Source of the DNA: Schizophyllum amplum
Lineage: Eukaryota > Basidiomycota > Agaricomycetes > Agaricales > Schizophyllaceae
Reading direction: 5' to 3'
Assembly (NCBI GenBank): GCA_007026445.1
Contig: VDMD01000001.1
Span: forward strand, 2,418,001-2,482,000
Length of the DNA stretch: 64,000 bases
Under the pieces are notes generated by a model. The model did not search any database, was not told the origin of the DNA, and saw only the letters and a list, made by a program, of their open reading frames with translations. Position 1 is the first letter of the stretch. Each line of letters opens with the position of its first letter. Below, piece by piece: positions 649 to 9,653 of the stretch. The position numbers and the translations under genes were made by a program.

Positions 649-1922
649 CTATGTGATCGTGTTCTCCAAGGTGGCCTAAGCGAACAGGCAATGGTAGCAG
701 GCGTGATGTTACGCACCGGCAACATCGTCCAGCCGACGACGGCCTTCCATATCCTCTCGTCAAGCTTCGCCTTGCAATCCGCGCACAATGTCTTCCTTTT
801 GACAACAGCCAGTCTGTCCCGCAGAATGGCACTGGAGGCATCTGCGGACAAGTCAGAGCAACGAAGAATCACGGGAGGACCTACTGACCCGGCCGTCCGT
901 CCGCAGTGACTTGCTGGGCCGTCTTGGTCCAGTCCCCCGCAAGTTTCCTCTGGGCGAGGAAGTCACACTCGTCTGTGCGCGGGTGGAACTCCTGCGATTG
1001 CTCTAGCAACGCCGCCAGCTGCGACACGCGGTTGTGTTGCAGCGTGAGCAGTTTCTTCATATACAGTGCGCCCATCGCCTCCGCCTCCGCATCGCTCATC
1101 GCGTGCAGGGGGTATCCCAGAAGATGCGCGCTCGCCACCTGCGCCAGCCCGAGCAGATCGTGCTGCGCGGCGAGCGTGTACACTCGCAGGGGCATGAGCG
1201 CCGCGTGCGAACGCAGCGCTGCAAACAGCGGCGCACCGGGCGCGACGAGCACTCGCGCATCCATCCCATACGCTCCGAGCCGTCGTACCGCCTCGGCGAG
1301 CGTGTCGAGTGTGGGCGCAAATGCCGCAGCCGACGCGCCGTACGCAGCATGCATCACGAGGTTCAGCACGTCCGCAGACTCGGTCAAGCGCAGGCGAGTG
1401 TCCGCGGCGGGGTACGCGTAGCCGAAGCCGTTGCACGACGCGCTCGCAAGCATGACGCTGCTTACCGAGAACAGCACGTCGTCCGCGGACAGTACCTCGA
1501 AGTCGGGCGGGTGGTCGGGGGATGGACTTGTGTGGGCGTTGAACGCGGTGGAAACAGAGATGGTGGCTTGCTCCGGGGATGATGGCGGGCTGGTGCTTGA
1601 GGGCTCGGGCTCGTTGGACCCGCGCTCCGTTGTCCAGTGGCCCGACTGCGAGGGATCGACTGTCAGGGGCTCAGCCAGCCATATGTTGTGATCTGAGAGA
1701 TCCGGTACCCAACCCTGCACATTATGAGCACCACAGAGAAGGGACAGCACTGGCGGTATGTACCTGCGGTGTTGGCGACTGCTGCTGTCTCCCCTCTCCG
1801 GCGTATGCATTCCGTTCGGGACCATGTCCATGCTCCCACTGGACCAGATTGTCGAAGTATCGGTCGTCGGGAGTAGAATAGTCCGAGACGTAGTCGCTGG
1901 GGGCCTGGAAAGCGTAGGGCAT
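649..1922 (-). CDS. BTB/POZ domain protein (intact tandem copy)
   Basis: Four exons can be joined on the minus strand: 1922-1764, 1714-889, 841-717 and 675-649, all with GT-AG introns of 41-49 nt, giving about 378 aa. After a low-complexity N-terminus rich in Ser, Pro and Gln (residues 1 to about 125), a BTB/POZ-like region starts at DFEVLSADDVLFSVSS and runs through segments typical of the large Agaricomycete BTB family (LNLVMHAAYG, RVYTLAAQHDLLGLAQVASAHLL). The short last exon ends ATLENTIT, and the decayed neighbour ends in a matching way, which supports the intron-3 call. BTB proteins usually act as dimerising adaptors, often for cullin-3 ligases; the substrate here is unknown. The start ATG at 1922 lies about 80 nt downstream of a TATA-like box. 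Confidence 0.8.
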
Positions 1923-3128: not shown

Positions 3129-4428
3129 CTACGTGATGACGGTGGTCTGCAAGTGCAACGTGAGCGAACGGTCAAGGATAACAAATCGAAGGCTACGCAC
3201 TGGCAACATCGTCCAGTCAACGACAGCCTTCCATATCCTTTCGTGAGCATCGTCTTGCAATCCGTGCACGATGTCTCGCTCTTGATAGAGGATAACCGAT
3301 CCCGCAGGATAGTACCCGACGCATCTAGGGATGAATCAGATTTACGAAAACCCCCCAGAGAGTTCACCTACCCGGTCCTCCCTCAGCCGTGACATGCAGC
3401 GCCATCCTCGTCCATGCCGTCGCAAGCCTCCTCTGCGCCGTGAATCCACACGTGGGCGTCCGCGGGTGAAATTCCTGCGTCGGTTCCAACAGTATTCTTA
3501 ATTGCGACACGACTATGCTGCAGCACGACCAGCCTCTTCCGATCAGTGCGCCCATTGCCTCCGCGTCCGCGTCGGTCATTACATGTAGCGGGTACGCCAG
3601 CAGATGCGCGCTCGCCATCTCCGCCAGCCTGCGCAGATCGTACTGCGCCGCGAGCACGTAGACGCACAGGGGCGTGAGCGCCGCGTGCAAACGCAGCGCT
3701 TCAAACAGCGGCGCACTGGGCGCGACGAGCGCTTGCGAGCCCATCCCGTAGACTCGAGTCGCCCGATCGCAGCAGCAATCGTGTCGAGTGACGGCGAAAA
3801 TGGCGCAACCGAGGCGCCGTACGCGGCGTGCAGCACGAGGTTCAGCACGTCCGCGGGCTCAGAGTTGCGCAGTCGCCCACCCGCGACGGGGTACGCTTGC
3901 AAGAAGCCGTTGCACGACGCGCCTGCGAGCATGACGCTGCTCACAAAGAACAGCACTTCGTCCGCGGACGTGATCTCGAAGTCGGGCGGGTGGTGGCGAG
4001 ATGGGCTGGCGTTTGCGTTGAACGCGGTAGAGACAGACATAGTGGTTTGCTCCGGGGATGCAGCTGAATCGCCATCAGGAGGAAAAAGTGCGAGGGACCC
4101 TGGCGTCAAAGGCGACGGACTGTATGCGTCGTATCCTGCCTGCGATGTTTCGCTCGTCGAGAGCTCGCTAGGCCACGGGCTTAGGTCTGAACCATCCGAT
4201 ACCCACCCCTGCGATGTATATGGTCAGGGAAGAGCTCCACGCAGCGCGGAAGAGACGTACTGGCGATGTCGGCAGCTGCTGCTGTCTCTGCTCTCCAGTG
4301 TACGGGTCCATCACTGCGCCGGCATCGTACTCGTGGTTCCAGTGTCCCATATAGCTGAAGTATTGCTCTTCGTTGATCTGGTCATAGCAGTGGTCGCTCT
4401 GGCCCTCGCACGGTGCGGGAAAAGGCAT
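3129..4428 (-). pseudogene. Decayed tandem copy of the BTB/POZ gene
   Basis: This region matches the BTB gene at 649-1922 exon by exon. It has the same start context (ATG at 4428), the same phase-0 first intron with a GTACGT donor, the same phase-1 second intron ending CCCTAG before ATGCG, and a last exon ending TVIT. Two single-base deletions relative to the intact copy break the frame. One is near 3757, inside the BTB region after IGRLES. The other is near 3241, in the third exon just before the stretch matching RIWKAVV. Each lies in an otherwise collinear alignment, so a truncated protein or none is expected. A sequencing error at one site is possible; two independent deletions make a true pseudogene more likely. 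Confidence 0.75.
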
Positions 4429-5206
4429 GACGGATGGCGAAGATGGGTGTCGACTTGCGCGCAGTGTTGTAAGGTTCCGACCGGGCAGGCGCGAGTGCCA
4501 CGCCGTTTTATAAGTCAGGGCGCGATAGAGGGGCGCTTGGCGGACCTATAGCCTCGAGCGTCAACGTTCAGCTGCGACTTGCACCGCCGACGAGGATAGC
4601 AAATCCTCCATAGGCGGAGACGAGACATCACCCGTGTGCCGCTACCATTGCCTCTCTTGATGCCCCACTGGCTGGCCTGTATAGTGCGGCCCATATACGT
4701 GGATCACGAGTTGGTGAAGTCGTCACAATTTAAGGCTGGAGATAACTGGCGATGCAAAGGCATTCAGAAACAATGCCTAGTGCGCCTCATAAACAAATAT
4801 CAAAAGAAGGCGGGCACCCATCGGCAAACTGCACGCACCTCATGGGAAATGGTCTCTAGGAGGTCATGGCCTGTATCTTTCTCTTGCTGGCCGCTTCAAT
4901 ACGAGCATGTTGGGACACCGACGCGTCTCCTTCGGACGCGGCGCCGCCAATTGCGAGTCGGCACTTAGCGTGCTCTTTCGAGGTACGACAACTGGGTTGC
5001 TACTATCTGTCAGGCGGGACTAAGATATGGACTGTCAGCCAGATAGGTCTTCATCGTACGCGTACCCGCGAACAATCGTACCTCGTGTGCGGCGCGCAGG
5101 TCGACCATGGCGTGCCGGACGGCCTTAGACGTTCTCGTGCGTGCTCATGGGCGCGTTCAGCGCGAGAGAATCTAAGAAGCTTGCTTGGAAGCAAGAAATC
5201 ATTCGC
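4429..5206. other. Intergenic, no gene recognised
   Basis: Apart from the TATA-like box near 4510, I see only short open frames with no domain or splice support. Confidence 0.5.
4506..4514 (-). promoter_or_regulatory. TATA-like box upstream of BTB pseudogene
   Basis: The minus strand reads CTTATAAAA, about 80 nt before the ATG at 4428, at the same distance as in the intact copy. Confidence 0.45.
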
Positions 5207-5412
5207 TCCGTGATAAGTTCACGCCGAGGAACGAGGCTTAAACTTATCTAAGGATAAGATATGAGAGGTTCGGAGTCGCCGGTCCGGCCACGCGTGTTCC
5301 CATTGAGCCATTGTATTCGGGCGAGCGAAGTTTTCGTTGTTCGAAGTTCTCGCCCTCACGACATACGACGTCTCAGTCGCCTAGCGCCGCAGCGCGCCAG
5401 CTTTCTTTTTCC
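5207..5412 (+). repeat. Direct repeat Y, copy 1 (promoter/5' leader of orphan gene)
   Basis: This 206-bp segment recurs at 7505-7710. It ends 8 nt before the ATG at 5421, so it supplies the promoter and leader. An 8-bp stem GATAAGTT (5212-5219) / AACTTATC (5241-5248) lies near its start, followed by ATAAGATAT (5254-5262), the reverse complement of ATATCTTAT at the end of X. It ends in a pyrimidine run. A small open frame from 5261 is carried in both copies and is probably not coding. Confidence 0.85.
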
Positions 5413-5420
5413 TTTGCATC

Positions 5421-6563
5421 ATGTTCAACGGCTACGGCAATTCTTCATATATGGAGCCCCAGACTGTCACCTACGCCGCCGACGGCTCCGCGTTACCACA
5501 CGCGCCCCAGCAATCGGCGCCTCGTCGTCGCCTCACGCACATCAACAACGCCATAACCGCAGCATACGCGGCCTGCTCTCTCTGGCACAGGCTGGATCTC
5601 AACGTCAGCATTGAGCAGGAGAACGAACGCAAGCGCCGCGCCCTCCACGATCATCTCCGCGACCCCACGCGCAATCCGCGACCAGACGATCAGGCGTCGC
5701 TTCTCACCATCCGAGAGGATGAGTGGCTTCTTCTACGCGTACCGTCCTTCGTCGCGGGTCTCGGTGTGGCCTTACCTCACTTCGTACAAGACGCCTTGGC
5801 CAAGCCCCCCGTGGCGGCCGAGCAGACGCGGGGCGTGCGCGCGCCGAACAAGCGCCCTCGGGCGGCAGGCGTCAGGGCCGAAGGCCGGGCATCTGACGGG
5901 TGGCGGTACGCGGACTCCAGTCGGATCCAGGCGCGCGTCCCTGGCCTGCGCCCCGCCATCACTTTCCACACCCTCTGGTACGACTCGGCGAACTACACCT
6001 ACATCCCCCAAACATTTTTCCTCACCACTAACATCCATTTCATCAACAAAAACATCGGAAACTCCACCATCCCTACGTGCCGATCCCCATGTGGTGGGCG
6101 CATCTTCGTCGTCGACAAGATGCGTTCCAACTTCCCCCATCTTTTCAAGGCTGCCGATACCGAGCTCACTCTCCCTGAGTGGGATCAATCTGCGGAGAAT
6201 CACTGCCAGTTTGAGATTTCACGGGACCGGGAGGGCGAGCGCGGCCAGCACGCATCACTGTATATTGACCACTACGGCTTCTTCTCCTCTCGCCCGGATC
6301 GCATCGAGCTCTACCAGGACTGGCTGCCTATTGAGGCCGCCCTGAAGGAAGACCTCCATACTTCCCCGACCATCTTCGACCCCGTTTTCTACGATCATCA
6401 GTACTTACGCGCGACCATCTCCCACCAGATGCGCTCGCGAGTTCAGGCCCGAGGCCTCTCGTTGGAGGAGTACGACAGCTCATACACCGCTGGCCCGTCG
6501 TACGACCAATCTGTTGACAGTCCGTCTTTCGATGACTTCGGCGAGGACTACGTTTCCGAGTGA
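5421..6563 (+). CDS. Orphan 380-aa protein carried by the Y-X unit
   Basis: This is a single uninterrupted exon of 380 codons, unusual in a window where almost every gene has introns. The ATG directly follows repeat Y. I recognise no domain. The protein has no signal peptide or clear membrane segment. A basic, Arg-rich middle (around residues 140-180, including PNKRPRAAG) is followed by an aromatic, Asn-rich stretch (TFHTLWYDSANYTYIPQTFF), then a C-terminal half with alternating acidic and aromatic residues and a disordered acidic end (DDFGEDYVSE). Codon use is GC-rich at third positions like neighbouring genes. It could be a lineage-specific expanded family or the passenger or effector protein of a mobile unit. 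Function is unknown. Confidence 0.65.
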   Translation: MFNGYGNSSYMEPQTVTYAADGSALPHAPQQSAPRRRLTHINNAITAAYAACSLWHRLDLNVSIEQENERKRRALHDHLRDPTRNPRPDDQASLLTIREDEWLLLRVPSFVAGLGVALPHFVQDALAKPPVAAEQTRGVRAPNKRPRAAGVRAEGRASDGWRYADSSRIQARVPGLRPAITFHTLWYDSANYTYIPQTFFLTTNIHFINKNIGNSTIPTCRSPCGGRIFVVDKMRSNFPHLFKAADTELTLPEWDQSAENHCQFEISRDREGERGQHASLYIDHYGFFSSRPDRIELYQDWLPIEAALKEDLHTSPTIFDPVFYDHQYLRATISHQMRSRVQARGLSLEEYDSSYTAGPSYDQSVDSPSFDDFGEDYVSE

Positions 6564-6714
6564 TGTATGTCGCATCGCATTGCGCCCGGCCCTTGTATGT
6601 CATTCTCTTGTTTCTTGTACATTTGATTCCATATACTTTCTTTTGGCTCGCGGGGGCCACTGTTTCGCTCGTCTGCTGTCTCCACAGCTCGTTTCCCTCT
6701 CCTTCCTCCGAGTT

Positions 6715-7085
6715 CATGCATCATGTCTCGTGCATTCTGATGACCGTCGTACATCGTCGTCGCCATCCTTCAAGGTTATGCATCATGCCTTGCATATCGT
6801 CCATCCCCCCTGGCAGTGTACTCCGTGGTTACTGCCCTCAGAAGTATGCTTCATGCTTCATGAGCTGTCTGGGACATCGAGTCCAGGGGGTAGTACCCAT
6901 GGTGCTCAGCCATTCCGACGTCTGCGTCATGCCTCATCCTGGCAGCCCATATCCTTTCGTGTTACGGGACGGTCGGACCTCGTGGTAGCCGCTCCTGAGG
7001 TCATGCATCATGCCTCCATATCATATCCATACCTCAGCCTGCACGGTCGTCCCCGTTGCCCCGAGGTCATGCATCATGCCTCGTC
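6715..7085 (+). repeat. Degenerate tandem array with TCATGCATCATGCCT motif
   Basis: The motif GTCATGCATCATGCCT or close variants recur near 6715, 6776, 6846, 6928, 6999 and 7061, spaced about 60-80 nt. The two rightmost copies share GAGGTCATGCATCATGCCTC exactly. The array lies in the 3' flank of the orphan gene, inside the repeated unit, and is absent from the deleted second unit. Confidence 0.6.
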
Positions 7086-7218
7086 AGTCACATATTCTTG
7101 AATTCTAGTAGGCTTGCTAGTTGGCCTATTCCCTGCACCCGCAGCTGGTCATGATTAGGTGTGTATTGTTTCACTTCAGAGCTCTCTAGCATATTTGGGC
7201 TAACACATGGGTGGCCGG

Positions 7219-7334
7219 CCGAGCTATGCACCTCTGGTGGGTTAGCCAGCCCCGTCTCACCCTGATGCTTCAACTGGGTCTGCCTGTTGTGAGCTGCATA
7301 GCTCGGTTTGGTAGAGTTCAGACCCAGTTGAAGC
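7219..7334. repeat. Two interleaved perfect inverted repeats
   Basis: Arm a CCGAGCTATGCA (7219-7230) pairs with TGCATAGCTCGG (7295-7306). Arm b GCTTCAACTGGGTCTG (7267-7282) pairs with CAGACCCAGTTGAAGC (7319-7334). The order a-b-a'-b' is pseudoknot-like: both stems cannot form as simple nested hairpins. The right arm of b lies inside repeat X, but the left arms lie outside it, so the second X copy lacks this structure. Confidence 0.7.
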
Positions 7335-7505
7335 CTCTGGCCTCACCGAAACTGACCTGTCGTCCGCTCAGAGCGGGTCGAGTACATGTTCGACCCGTTC
7401 TTTTGCAAACCCGAGGTTTGGTCCGCTCGGACTGAAACTCGGTTCTCATTCATCCTCGCGCACTGCGTCCGTCACGCTGAGGCGACGCAGAACGAATATC
7501 TTATT
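7310..7505 (+). repeat. Direct repeat X, copy 1 (hairpin-rich)
   Basis: A 196-bp segment repeated at 7752-7947. It holds three successive stems: CGGGTCGA/TCGACCCG around an 8-nt loop, an imperfect 15-bp stem CCGAGGTTTGGTCCG/CGGACTGAAACTCGG with a 2-nt loop, and CTGCGTC/GACGCAG about 15 nt before the end. It abuts the second Y copy directly. Confidence 0.85.
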
Positions 7506-7710
7506 CCGTGATAAGTTCACGCCGAGGAACGAGGCTTAAACTTATCTAAGGATAAGATATGAGAGGTTCGGAGTCGCCGGTCCGGCCACGCGTGTTCCCA
7601 TTGAGCCATTGTATTCGGGCGAGCGAAGTTTTCGTTGTTCGAAGTTCTCGCCCTCACGACATACGACGTCTCAGTCGCCTAGCGCCGCAGCGCGCCAGCT
7701 TTCTTTTTCC
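7505..7710 (+). repeat. Direct repeat Y, copy 2
   Basis: Second copy of the promoter/leader segment, joined directly to the end of X. It is followed not by the gene but by 41 unique bases and then the second X. Without an ATG-bearing gene behind it, this promoter copy should drive only a short transcript. Confidence 0.85.
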
Positions 7711-7751
7711 CCCACCCTCCGCATCCCAGTGGTATCGACATGGCCGGTTTC

Positions 7752-7947
7752 GGTAGAGTTCAGACCCAGTTGAAGCCTCTGGCCTCACCGAAACTGACCT
7801 GTCGTCCGCTCAGAGCGGGTCGAGTACATGTTCGACCCGTTCTTTTGCAAACCCGAGGTTTGGTCCGCTCGGACTGAAACTCGGTTCTCATTCATCCTCG
7901 CGCACTGCGTCCGTCACGCTGAGGCGACGCAGAACGAATATCTTATT
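7752..7947 (+). repeat. Direct repeat X, copy 2
   Basis: Second copy of the hairpin-rich segment, ending the deleted unit. The sequence to its right (from 7948) resembles nothing else in the window. Confidence 0.85.
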
Positions 7948-8435: not shown

Positions 8436-9653
8436 ATGGCCAGCATGCTCGCCAGACGCGCCGCGGCGGCGGCGAGGAGACCCTCAGTGCGCCTTTTCTC
8501 GACGACGCCTCGTTCGCGCGAGGATACTATCAGGCCGCCAACTCCCCCTAAACCCATCGACGATTCTACCTCTGCGCTCGAGTACAAGCGGCATCAGGCT
8601 CGCCGTCCGCCCCCGCTACCCTCAATGGACCTCCCCCGCTCGCGTACCGCCGAGGAGGCAGTCACAAACATTCTATACAACACCCCGCCACCGAGCCTGC
8701 AGCCCTACAAGAAGTGCGTACTGTTCTTTTCACTCACACTGTTCCTCCCTCCACAATCTTCCTTTCCCCGCATACCCCACCAGGAGACCGCGGTCGAGAC
8801 TGACCTTCCCCTTCCAGGCACATCCTCAATTGTCTGGTGCAGAATGAGCCCGGTGTGCTCTCGCGTGTGTCCGGCATTCTCGCAGGCCGTGGCTTCAATA
8901 TCGAGTCCCTTGTTGTCTGCCGCACCGAAATTCGAGACCTCAGTCGCATGTGCATCGTCCTCTCTGGCCAGGAGGGCGTGGTAGAGCAAGCTCGGCGCCA
9001 GCTTGAGGATCTTGTACGCCTCTTCCCTTCCTCACACGTACTGTGGGGCTAACTCAATTTTGCCAGGTCCCCGTCTGGGCTGTCCTCGACTACACCGACA
9101 CGCGCACCATCACGCGCGAGCTGCTCCTCGTCAAGCTCTCCATCCTCGGACCCGAGTATCTCGACCAGCAGCTCTCCGGTGGCCCATCGCACGCGGCACA
9201 GCGCCACGAGCCCTCTGTGGACGACAAGCTTCAACGCGAGGTCCAGCTAGCCGAGCAGTTCACCCACCCCGACCAAGCACCTCATGCCGACATGCCGCTC
9301 ACCCCGTCGCAAGCACTACGCCTCAAGCACCAGCATATGCAGAGCATCTCAACGCTCGCCGACCAGTTCGGCGGCAAGATCGTGGACGTGAGCGAGAACA
9401 GCATCATCGTCGAGCTCACGGCGAAAACGAGTCGCGTGGAGGCCTTCCTCAGCCTCGTCAAGCCGTACGGCATCTTGGAAGCGGCTCGGACTGGTCAGTC
9501 TTATTTGCTGTTATTGTCGCTACCTTGATTTCTAACGCTCGTGCAGGCGTTATGGCCATGCCTCGTACACCAATCAATGTCGCACCGGAAGATGCTGAGC
9601 TCTCGGTCGAGGAGGCTGCTGCTGTTGACGCGTCTCTCCTTCCCCCCGGCTAG
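8436..9653 (+). CDS. ILV6: Acetolactate synthase regulatory (small) subunit
   Basis: This is the regulatory subunit of acetohydroxyacid synthase in mitochondria, the first common step of valine, leucine and isoleucine synthesis; the family mediates valine feedback. Exons are 8436-8713, 8818-9013, 9067-9493 and 9547-9653, all GT-AG. The first about 30 residues (RRAAAAARRPSVRLFSTTPRS) form an Arg-rich mitochondrial targeting peptide. The ACT domain reads HILNCLVQNEPGVLSRVSGI, LAGRGFNIESLVV and MCIVLSGQEGVVEQARRQLE. The second half carries VWAVLDYT and the conserved SISTLADQFGGKIVDVSENS to VKPYGILEAARTG. About 335 aa, close to the fungal family length. It converges on COG5 with a 166-nt gap. Confidence 0.95.

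What the first reader, a model, noticed from the sequence alone, without database searches (positions are those of the whole stretch)
5207..7947. Head-to-tail repeated unit Y-ORF-X / Y-X: possible undescribed mobile unit
Two segments (Y 206 bp, X 196 bp) look identical by eye and bracket an orphan intronless gene, and a second unit has kept both ends but lost the gene. A full copy plus an end-preserving deletion derivative in tandem is the pattern of an autonomous/non-autonomous pair, or of rolling-circle tandem insertions. The ends carry hairpins and a 9-nt inverted pair (ATAAGATAT in Y, ATATCTTAT at the X end). No known transposition protein is visible, so a plain tandem duplication with internal deletion is the main alternative.
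Basis: partly seen in the sequence, partly recalled or inferred. Interest (0 to 1): 0.75.

Follow-up and report, generated by a model that had tools for sequence, protein, structure and literature searches.

The report
Jumping dimer with rolling-circle-like ends
A 2.7 kb piece of DNA in the mushroom Schizophyllum amplum, made of a long and a gene-less short unit head to tail, sits as one block at two unrelated places in the genome and looks like an unusual rolling-circle (Helitron-type) transposon that carries a gene with no known relatives.

Summary
The repeat is real and it is mobile. Y (206 bp) and X (196 bp) occur twice each, identical. The whole dimer Y-ORF-X-Y-X (window 5207-7946, 2740 bp) occurs a second time at C235:224848-227590, 99.3% identical, in unrelated flanks. 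For that copy an uninterrupted allele exists at C27: the insertion is exact, with no target duplication or loss. Plain tandem duplication therefore does not explain the locus. Read on the minus strand the ends resemble the published plan of Helitron2/HINE rolling-circle elements: a 9-nt inverted repeat at the 5' terminus, its partner 47 nt from the 3' terminus, end palindromes, exact joining of 3' to 5' ends. The targets (GC at one side, loop of a small inverted repeat; two sites only) are not the T|T or A|T of known groups, and the repeat is short. The 380-aa ORF has no relative found outside this element. Rep/PIF1 Helitron frames elsewhere in the genome could move it in trans, but none was linked to these ends. 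Best reading: a non-autonomous, dimeric, Helitron2-like element; the class is inferred, the mobility is shown.

The parts
5207..7946 (-). Whole mobile block (dimer), 2740 bp; minus-strand 5' end at 7946, 3' end at 5207
   Evidence: Second copy at C235:224848-227590 with unrelated flanks; exact empty site at C27 for that second copy
5207..7504 (-). Long unit Y-ORF-X, 2298 bp
7505..7946 (-). Short unit Y-X without the gene, 442 bp
5207..5412 (-). Y, first copy: minus-strand 3' end of the element; also the region upstream of the ORF (ends 8 nt before its ATG)
   Evidence: four full-length matches at 100% in the genome
7505..7710 (-). Y, second copy
7310..7504 (-). X, first copy: minus-strand 5' end of the long unit (weaker similarity extends to 7297)
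7752..7946 (-). X, second copy: minus-strand 5' end of the whole block
5254..5262 (+). ATAAGATAT, subterminal arm of the asymmetric inverted repeat, 47 nt from the minus-strand 3' terminus (second copy 7552-7560)
   Evidence: chance estimate
7938..7946 (+). ATATCTTAT, terminal arm of the asymmetric inverted repeat (first copy 7496-7504; the outer end of the C235 copy has an extra AT)
   Evidence: chance estimate
5212..5248 (.). Inverted repeat GATAAGTT...AACTTATC, 5 nt from the terminus (second copy 7510-7546)
   Evidence: Forms in the predicted fold of the joint; the fold of the 61-nt Y end alone prefers two smaller hairpins instead, CGTGA/TCACG and CTTATC/GATAAG
7905..7932 (.). Inverted repeat CTGCGTC...GACGCAG, 14 nt from the terminus (first copy 7463-7490)
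   Evidence: forms in the plus-strand fold, but the 65-nt stretch folds no better than many shuffles (z -1.27 plus, -0.45 minus)
5421..6563 (+). ORF of 380 aa, intronless; its one database match is BD626DRAFT_509611, a protein from a contig of the length of C235
6703..7085 (+). Irregularly spaced repeats of about 16-29 nt around CATGCATCATGCCTC (central repeats)
7219..7333 (.). Two interleaved perfect inverted repeats (CCGAGCTATGCA 7219 / TGCATAGCTCGG 7295; CTTCAACTGGGTCTG 7268 / CAGACCCAGTTGAAG 7319), pseudoknot-like order
   Evidence: same in both copies of the block
7711..7751 (.). Stretch of about 34-41 nt between Y and X of the short unit, at its internal deletion
   Evidence: a 33-nt pattern from it is found only in the two copies, up to 3 mismatches

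Best explanation
It is a non-autonomous rolling-circle transposon of the Helitron2/HINE type, moved in trans by a Rep-helicase made elsewhere. On the minus strand it begins ATAAGATATTCG and ends in a subterminal inverted-repeat arm, a palindrome and ACGGA. Shown: the dimer is at two unrelated places, and one insertion is exact, with no target duplication. Inferred: a single strand is peeled off from the 5' end, ends are joined as a circle or concatemer (which makes the exact 3'-5' joint and the head-to-tail dimer), and the strand enters the target, perhaps in a small hairpin loop. The short unit is an end-preserving deletion derivative. Its internal 3' end was passed over, so both units now travel as one block. 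The 380-aa gene is an element-borne passenger, probably still translated.
For: Second locus in unrelated flanks, 15 substitutions and two indels (1 and 2 bases) apart within the block. Empty allele C27:38218-38820, contiguous over the site, no duplication, no loss (3512 of 3613 aligned columns identical over the wider flanks). Asymmetric 9-nt inverted repeat, 0 nt from one end and 47 nt from the other, with a palindrome between arm and 3' end. Compare mite HINEs: arms about 2-4 nt and 38-60 nt from the termini, palindrome about 8-35 nt from the 3' terminus, no target modification (PMC4067079 passages). Compare fungal FoHelis: asymmetric inverted repeats, joined FoHeli1 ends detected by PCR (PMC5148889, parts 1-3 of 8). 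Exact joint at 7504/7505, in a stretch folding at z -3.28. Central repeats. 18 Helitron_like_N matches in the genome; PIF1 helicase in 7 of 7 long frames examined from those loci.
Against: Targets are GC|CG and GC|TA (plus strand), not T|T. The inverted repeat is 9 nt, below the 12-15 nt of mite HINEs and the 11 nt used to define Helentron families. The palindromes lie 5 nt (or, for the smaller predicted hairpin, 2 nt) from the 3' terminus, outside the published 8-35. The X-end hairpin is no stronger than many shuffles. No Rep-Hel element with these ends was found: end patterns hit the element's own copies and one 3-mismatch site at C85 that could not be looked at; in the 8 of 18 Helitron loci whose wider flanks were fetched the best match to Y, X or their ends had E 0.69. 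Only two loci are known, one with an empty site. No endonuclease domain of the Helentron kind is among the listed Pfam matches of the 7 frames. On the plus strand the ends can also be read as a degenerate Helitron1 (TC...hairpin...CTTAT).
Confidence: 0.64

Rival explanations
1. Same mechanism, other orientation: a degenerate canonical Helitron1 read on the plus strand, 5' TC... and 3' hairpin 14 nt before ...CTTAT, with the ORF in sense.
For: Starts TC at both loci; 7-bp stem 14 nt from the end, published for canonical Helitrons at 10-12 nt or about 12 nt from the end; a Pleurotus family ends CTTG rather than CTRR. The X-end hairpin forms in the plus-strand fold. Rep/PIF1 frames in the genome.
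Against: Insertion is not between A and T at either site. The end CTTAT is not CTRR, and in the empty site no T follows, so the last T belongs to the element. The plus-strand 65-nt X end folds at only z -1.27. It leaves the asymmetric inverted repeat unexplained (8 of 20,000 by chance).
Confidence: 0.19
2. A new class of transposon without target duplication in which the 380-aa protein itself does the work and the targets are hairpin loops.
For: The ORF is open in both copies; 4 of its 7 differences are synonymous where 24% of sites are (P 0.06 for 7, 0.03 if the adjacent pair counts once). No host or database source for it was found. Both insertions lie in the loop of an inverted repeat with stem 6 and 5 (background 1.0% and 3.4% of positions).
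Against: 0 families in Pfam, NCBIfam and PHROGs, one chance-level PDB match (E 0.89). AlphaFold model without value (mean pLDDT 35). The short unit and the rolling-circle-like end plan need no new enzyme. Two sites only, and the loop test was thought of after seeing them.
Confidence: 0.08
3. A Crypton-like element integrated as a circle by a tyrosine recombinase.
For: No target duplication; head-to-tail joint as from a circle; the joint CTTAT-TCCGTG-ATAAG is palindromic round a 6-bp spacer.
Against: Such integration leaves the same core at both ends (recalled); the junctions at the two loci do not share one. The ORF matches no recombinase family. The genome was not searched for such recombinases.
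Confidence: 0.05
4. Plain local tandem duplication with an internal deletion, later copied elsewhere by segmental duplication or repair.
For: Only two loci; the dimer is the same at both.
Against: The copied block begins at the first base of Y (plus a shared GC before it) and ends at the last base of X, and the other allele is uninterrupted at that very point. Segmental copying would not be expected to pick these ends.
Confidence: 0.04

Closest known systems
Helitron2 / Helentron and their non-autonomous HINEs (DINE-1-like)
   Same: Asymmetric inverted repeats (5' near-terminal, 3' subterminal), palindrome near the 3' end, no target duplication, central repeats, deletion derivatives; tandem arrays are reported for Helitrons
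   Different: Target is not T|T; inverted repeat 9 nt instead of 12-15; palindrome nearer the end; an orphan ORF; the dimer sits as one block at both loci; no partner identified
FoHeli elements of Fusarium oxysporum and their non-autonomous forms
   Same: Fungal, asymmetric inverted repeats, hairpins at both ends in two subgroups, non-autonomous forms of 0.8 and 1.9 kb, copies with repeated 5' termini attributed to transposition, joined FoHeli1 ends by PCR, one additional ORF without known domains in FoHeli3
   Different: FoHeli1/2 prefer TNAT|A; ends (TCAG..ATTTT, TGCCT..CTCCTGT) differ in sequence; their full-length forms carry Rep-Hel
HELPO1/HELPO2 Helitrons of Pleurotus ostreatus
   Same: Basidiomycete rolling-circle elements; that paper reports genes of unknown function captured in them, three found only in that species (passages)
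   Different: T[C/G]..CTRR or CTTG ends and A|T insertion

Membership tests
Helitron2 / HINE | Asymmetric inverted repeat: one arm at or near the 5' terminus, the other about 38-60 nt from the 3' terminus | tested here: met
   Position met: 0 nt and 47 nt, exact arms. Length not: 9 nt, against 12-15 nt in mite HINEs and the 11-nt family criterion
Helitron2 / HINE | Palindrome near the 3' terminus | tested here: met
   Y end folds at z -2.92 and the joint at z -3.28; it lies 5 (or 2) nt from the end, not 8-35
Helitron2 / HINE | Hairpin also at the 5' end (as in FoHeli1/2) | tested here: inconclusive
   7-bp stem present, but z -0.45 (minus) and -1.27 (plus) for the 65-nt X end
Helitron2 / HINE | No target-site duplication or other target change | tested here: met
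   One filled/empty pair, C235 and C27; no empty allele of the C1 site was found
Helitron2 / HINE | Insertion in T-rich or T|T target | tested here: not met
   GC|CG and GC|TA on the plus strand; for FoHeli3-5 no preference could be established either
Helitron2 / HINE | Shares ends with a Rep-Hel-coding partner | tested here: inconclusive
   None found by end patterns (one 3-mismatch site at C85 not examined) or in 8 of 18 Helitron loci with wider flanks; wider flanks of 10 of 18 not obtained
Canonical Helitron1 | 5' TC and 3' CTRR, insertion between A and T | tested here: not met
   TC met on the plus strand; CTTAT is not CTRR; no A|T target
Crypton (tyrosine recombinase) | Same short core at both ends after integration (recalled criterion) | tested here: not met
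   Junctions
Cut-and-paste (DDE) transposon or MITE | Terminal inverted repeats and target-site duplication | tested here: not met
Replitron / IS200-605-like HUH element | Y1 HUH transposase (recalled) | tested here: inconclusive
   No such family matched by the ORF; a partner in trans was not searched for; the primary paper was not among the 3 papers listed and its features were not compared

The most novel reading that the evidence does not exclude
The 380-aa orphan protein is a new kind of transposition protein, and the block is a new class of eukaryotic element that enters the loops of small hairpins without target duplication and moves as a stable dimer.
Probability: 0.08. Interest if true: 0.85.

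Novelty: new variant of a known kind. Interest (0 to 1): 0.45.

Why it matters
An exactly mapped insertion of a small Helitron2-like element in a mushroom, present on one of two allelic contigs and thus probably recent, gives a clean test of two points: whether read-through of an internal 3' end makes stable dimers, and what the targets of such fungal elements are. If the orphan gene helps its element move, it would be a new accessory or transposition protein.

Tried and rejected
Termini of the Helitron loci in this genome: a scan for exact 11-nt inverted repeats round the Rep domain in the 8 fetched loci listed many pairs, none with a hairpin by the scan's rule. A palindrome at the 5' edge of the block shared by C245 and C275 has no partner downstream with up to 5 mismatches in the fetched stretches, so those ends stay unresolved. 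Y, X and their ends against the 8 loci gave only matches of 10-32 nt, best E 0.69.

End patterns in the genome: the 22-base X-end pattern with up to 3 mismatches gave 4 places, all in the element, while its reversed control gave 2; the 20-base Y-end pattern gave the 4 Y copies and one 3-mismatch place at C85, control 0, which was not examined; a spaced pattern of the Y end gave the 4 Y copies alone, control 0.

Relatives of the ORF: one cluster, itself, also at E up to 10, among 3403 word-sharing candidates; own genome: the two copies plus matches at E 0.32 and 0.91; Pfam, NCBIfam, PHROGs 0; PDB one at E 0.89. AlphaFold on the single sequence failed (mean pLDDT 35), so no fold search was made. 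No Rfam match at gathering scores and no tRNA in the window.

Internal region 6564-7296 and a 33-nt piece of the short unit's filler: only in the two copies. Literature: searches. I saw their listings, parts 1-3 of 8 of PMC5148889, and passages of PMC4067079 and PMC4289320. No title or abstract start listed there was about this element; that is not proof of absence.

Corrections made on checking the draft: the number of substitutions between the copies is 15; X is identical over 196 nt; the smaller hairpins preferred in the Y-end fold and the weak X-end hairpin are now told.
Full report
What is there. The window lies in contig C1 of a 49.65 Mb assembly of 309 contigs. The only database match of the ORF is 'hypothetical protein BD626DRAFT_509611 [Schizophyllum amplum]' on a 362,553-base contig, the length of C235 in this genome. 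The layout is Y (5207-5412), ORF (5421-6563), non-coding with repeats (6564-7296), X (identical part 7310-7504), Y again (7505-7710), about 34-41 nt of other sequence, X again (7752-7946). The two units are joined without a spare base.

Mobility. A search of the genome with Y gave 4 places, with X 4 places plus two 22-nt arms at E 2.6, with the non-coding part 2: two loci, each with the whole dimer; the tool calls its counts lower bounds. Of the 9.9 kb fetched from C235, one block aligns with the window over 5198-7941 at 99.3%, plus the cross-matches of the repeats, and nothing beyond. The letters show the common part to be the element plus the two preceding bases GC.

Empty site. The joined flanks of the C235 copy hit C27:38218-38820 as one uninterrupted match, 97%. 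The site reads GCATCCTTGC^CGTGGATGC; the filled one reads ...TTGC|TCCGTG...CTTAT|CGTGG.... Nothing is duplicated and nothing is lost. Over 3613 aligned columns C27 and the joined C235 flanks differ by 30 substitutions and 71 gap columns, as two haplotypes would; that they are alleles and not paralogues is inferred. The same search with the C1 flanks found only C1 itself, so no empty allele is known for the window's own copy.

The two copies. Within the block they differ by 15 substitutions (7 in the ORF, 6 in the following non-coding part, 1 in each X) and two indels of 1 and 2 bases. Y is identical in all four copies. Both X copies in C1 have A, and both in C235 have T, at the same point 14 nt from the end: one site only, but it suggests that the repeats within a locus are kept alike by conversion or by the copying process. 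The outer end of the C235 copy has an extra AT.

Ends. On the minus strand the block starts ATAAGATATTCGT, followed by a 7-bp stem, and ends ATATCTTATCCTTAGATAAG...ACTTATCACGGA. The 9-nt arm sits at the 5' terminus and 47 nt before the 3' terminus. A terminal 9-mer had such a partner in 8 of 20,000 random pairs; an inverted repeat of 9 or more anywhere between two 70-nt ends occurred in 13 of 1000 pairs, so it is the terminal position that makes it notable. The stretch over the joint folds far better than shuffles (z -3.28, 0 of 200), the Y end well (z -2.92, 2 of 200; there two small hairpins, not the longer inverted repeat, are preferred), the X end not (z -0.45 minus strand, -1.27 plus strand).

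Comparison. In the passages read, mite HINE arms are 12-15 nt and lie 2-4 nt and 38-60 nt from the termini, with a 3' palindrome 8-35 nt from the end, no target modification and T-rich targets (PMC4067079). Fungal FoHelis have asymmetric inverted repeats, hairpins at both ends in two subgroups, non-autonomous derivatives, repeated 5' termini attributed to transposition, and PCR evidence of joined FoHeli1 ends (PMC5148889, parts 1-3 of 8). This block fits the plan but differs in the target, the length of the repeat and the closeness of the palindrome to the end. Read on the plus strand it has TC and a stem 14 nt from its end, but CTTAT and no A|T target (compare PMC4289320 passages).

Targets. 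Both sites have GC to the left of the insertion and lie in the loop of an inverted repeat: stem 6, loop 7 at C235; stem 5, loop 8 at C1 (the C1 site is inferred from its flanks). Background for stems of at least 6 and 5 with loops of 4-10 is 1.0% and 3.4% of window positions. The test was thought of after seeing the sites and n is 2, so it is a lead only.

Who moves it. The genome has at least 18 matches to Helitron_like_N, 18 of 18 over the cut-off. Of 7 long open frames, from 7 of the 8 loci fetched with wider flanks, 7 hold a PIF1 helicase and 6 also a piece of Helitron_like_N (one of these below cut-off); no endonuclease family is listed at E 0.001 (frames cut at the fetched borders). Helpers are thus plausible, but none was found to share the ends. 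One end-pattern match at C85, 3 mismatches in 20, could not be examined; by my own estimate two or three such matches are expected by chance, though the reversed control gave none.

The ORF. GC3 is 0.74 against 0.61 and 0.47 at positions 1 and 2; 4 of 7 differences are synonymous, binomial P 0.06 (0.03 if the adjacent pair is one event). This hints at translation under mild constraint. It has no relative among 5.8 billion proteins within that tool's word-based sensitivity.

Verdict. Mobility of the dimer: shown. Rolling-circle class, Helitron2-like: inferred from anatomy. Role of the 380-aa protein: open. As a finding it is a good, small case of a known mechanism with unusual targets and an unusual dimeric state, rather than a wholly new system.

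Noticed in passing
window 7219-7333: Two interleaved perfect inverted repeats of 12 and 15 nt in pseudoknot order just upstream of and into X, kept in both copies of the block.
   Followed up: partly
window 7491 and 7933; L005 7634 and 8076: The same A/T difference is shared by both X copies within each locus, which looks like concerted change between the two repeats.
   Followed up: partly
window 881-1831 and 3364-4109, minus strand: Open frames with similar stretches (e.g. SVSTAFNA, DVLNLV, HAAYGAS) look like diverged tandem paralogues; no Pfam match at E 0.01 for the three frames as cut.
   Followed up: partly
window 9043-9528, plus strand: Exon of an acetolactate synthase small subunit gene (PF10369, E 2.7e-18), downstream of the element.
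   Followed up: partly
L035-L036 and L039-L040 (C245, C275): Two Rep/PIF1 Helitrons whose shared block begins at a palindrome TTATTGCCGAACCTTTGGTTTGGC with different flanks before it, a possible Helitron2-type 5' end; a 3' partner was not found.
   Followed up: partly
L037-L038 and L046-L047 (C293, C267): 10.4 kb shared at 99.6% between two contigs in opposite orientation, including a Helitron: duplicated haplotype or recent copy.
   Followed up: no
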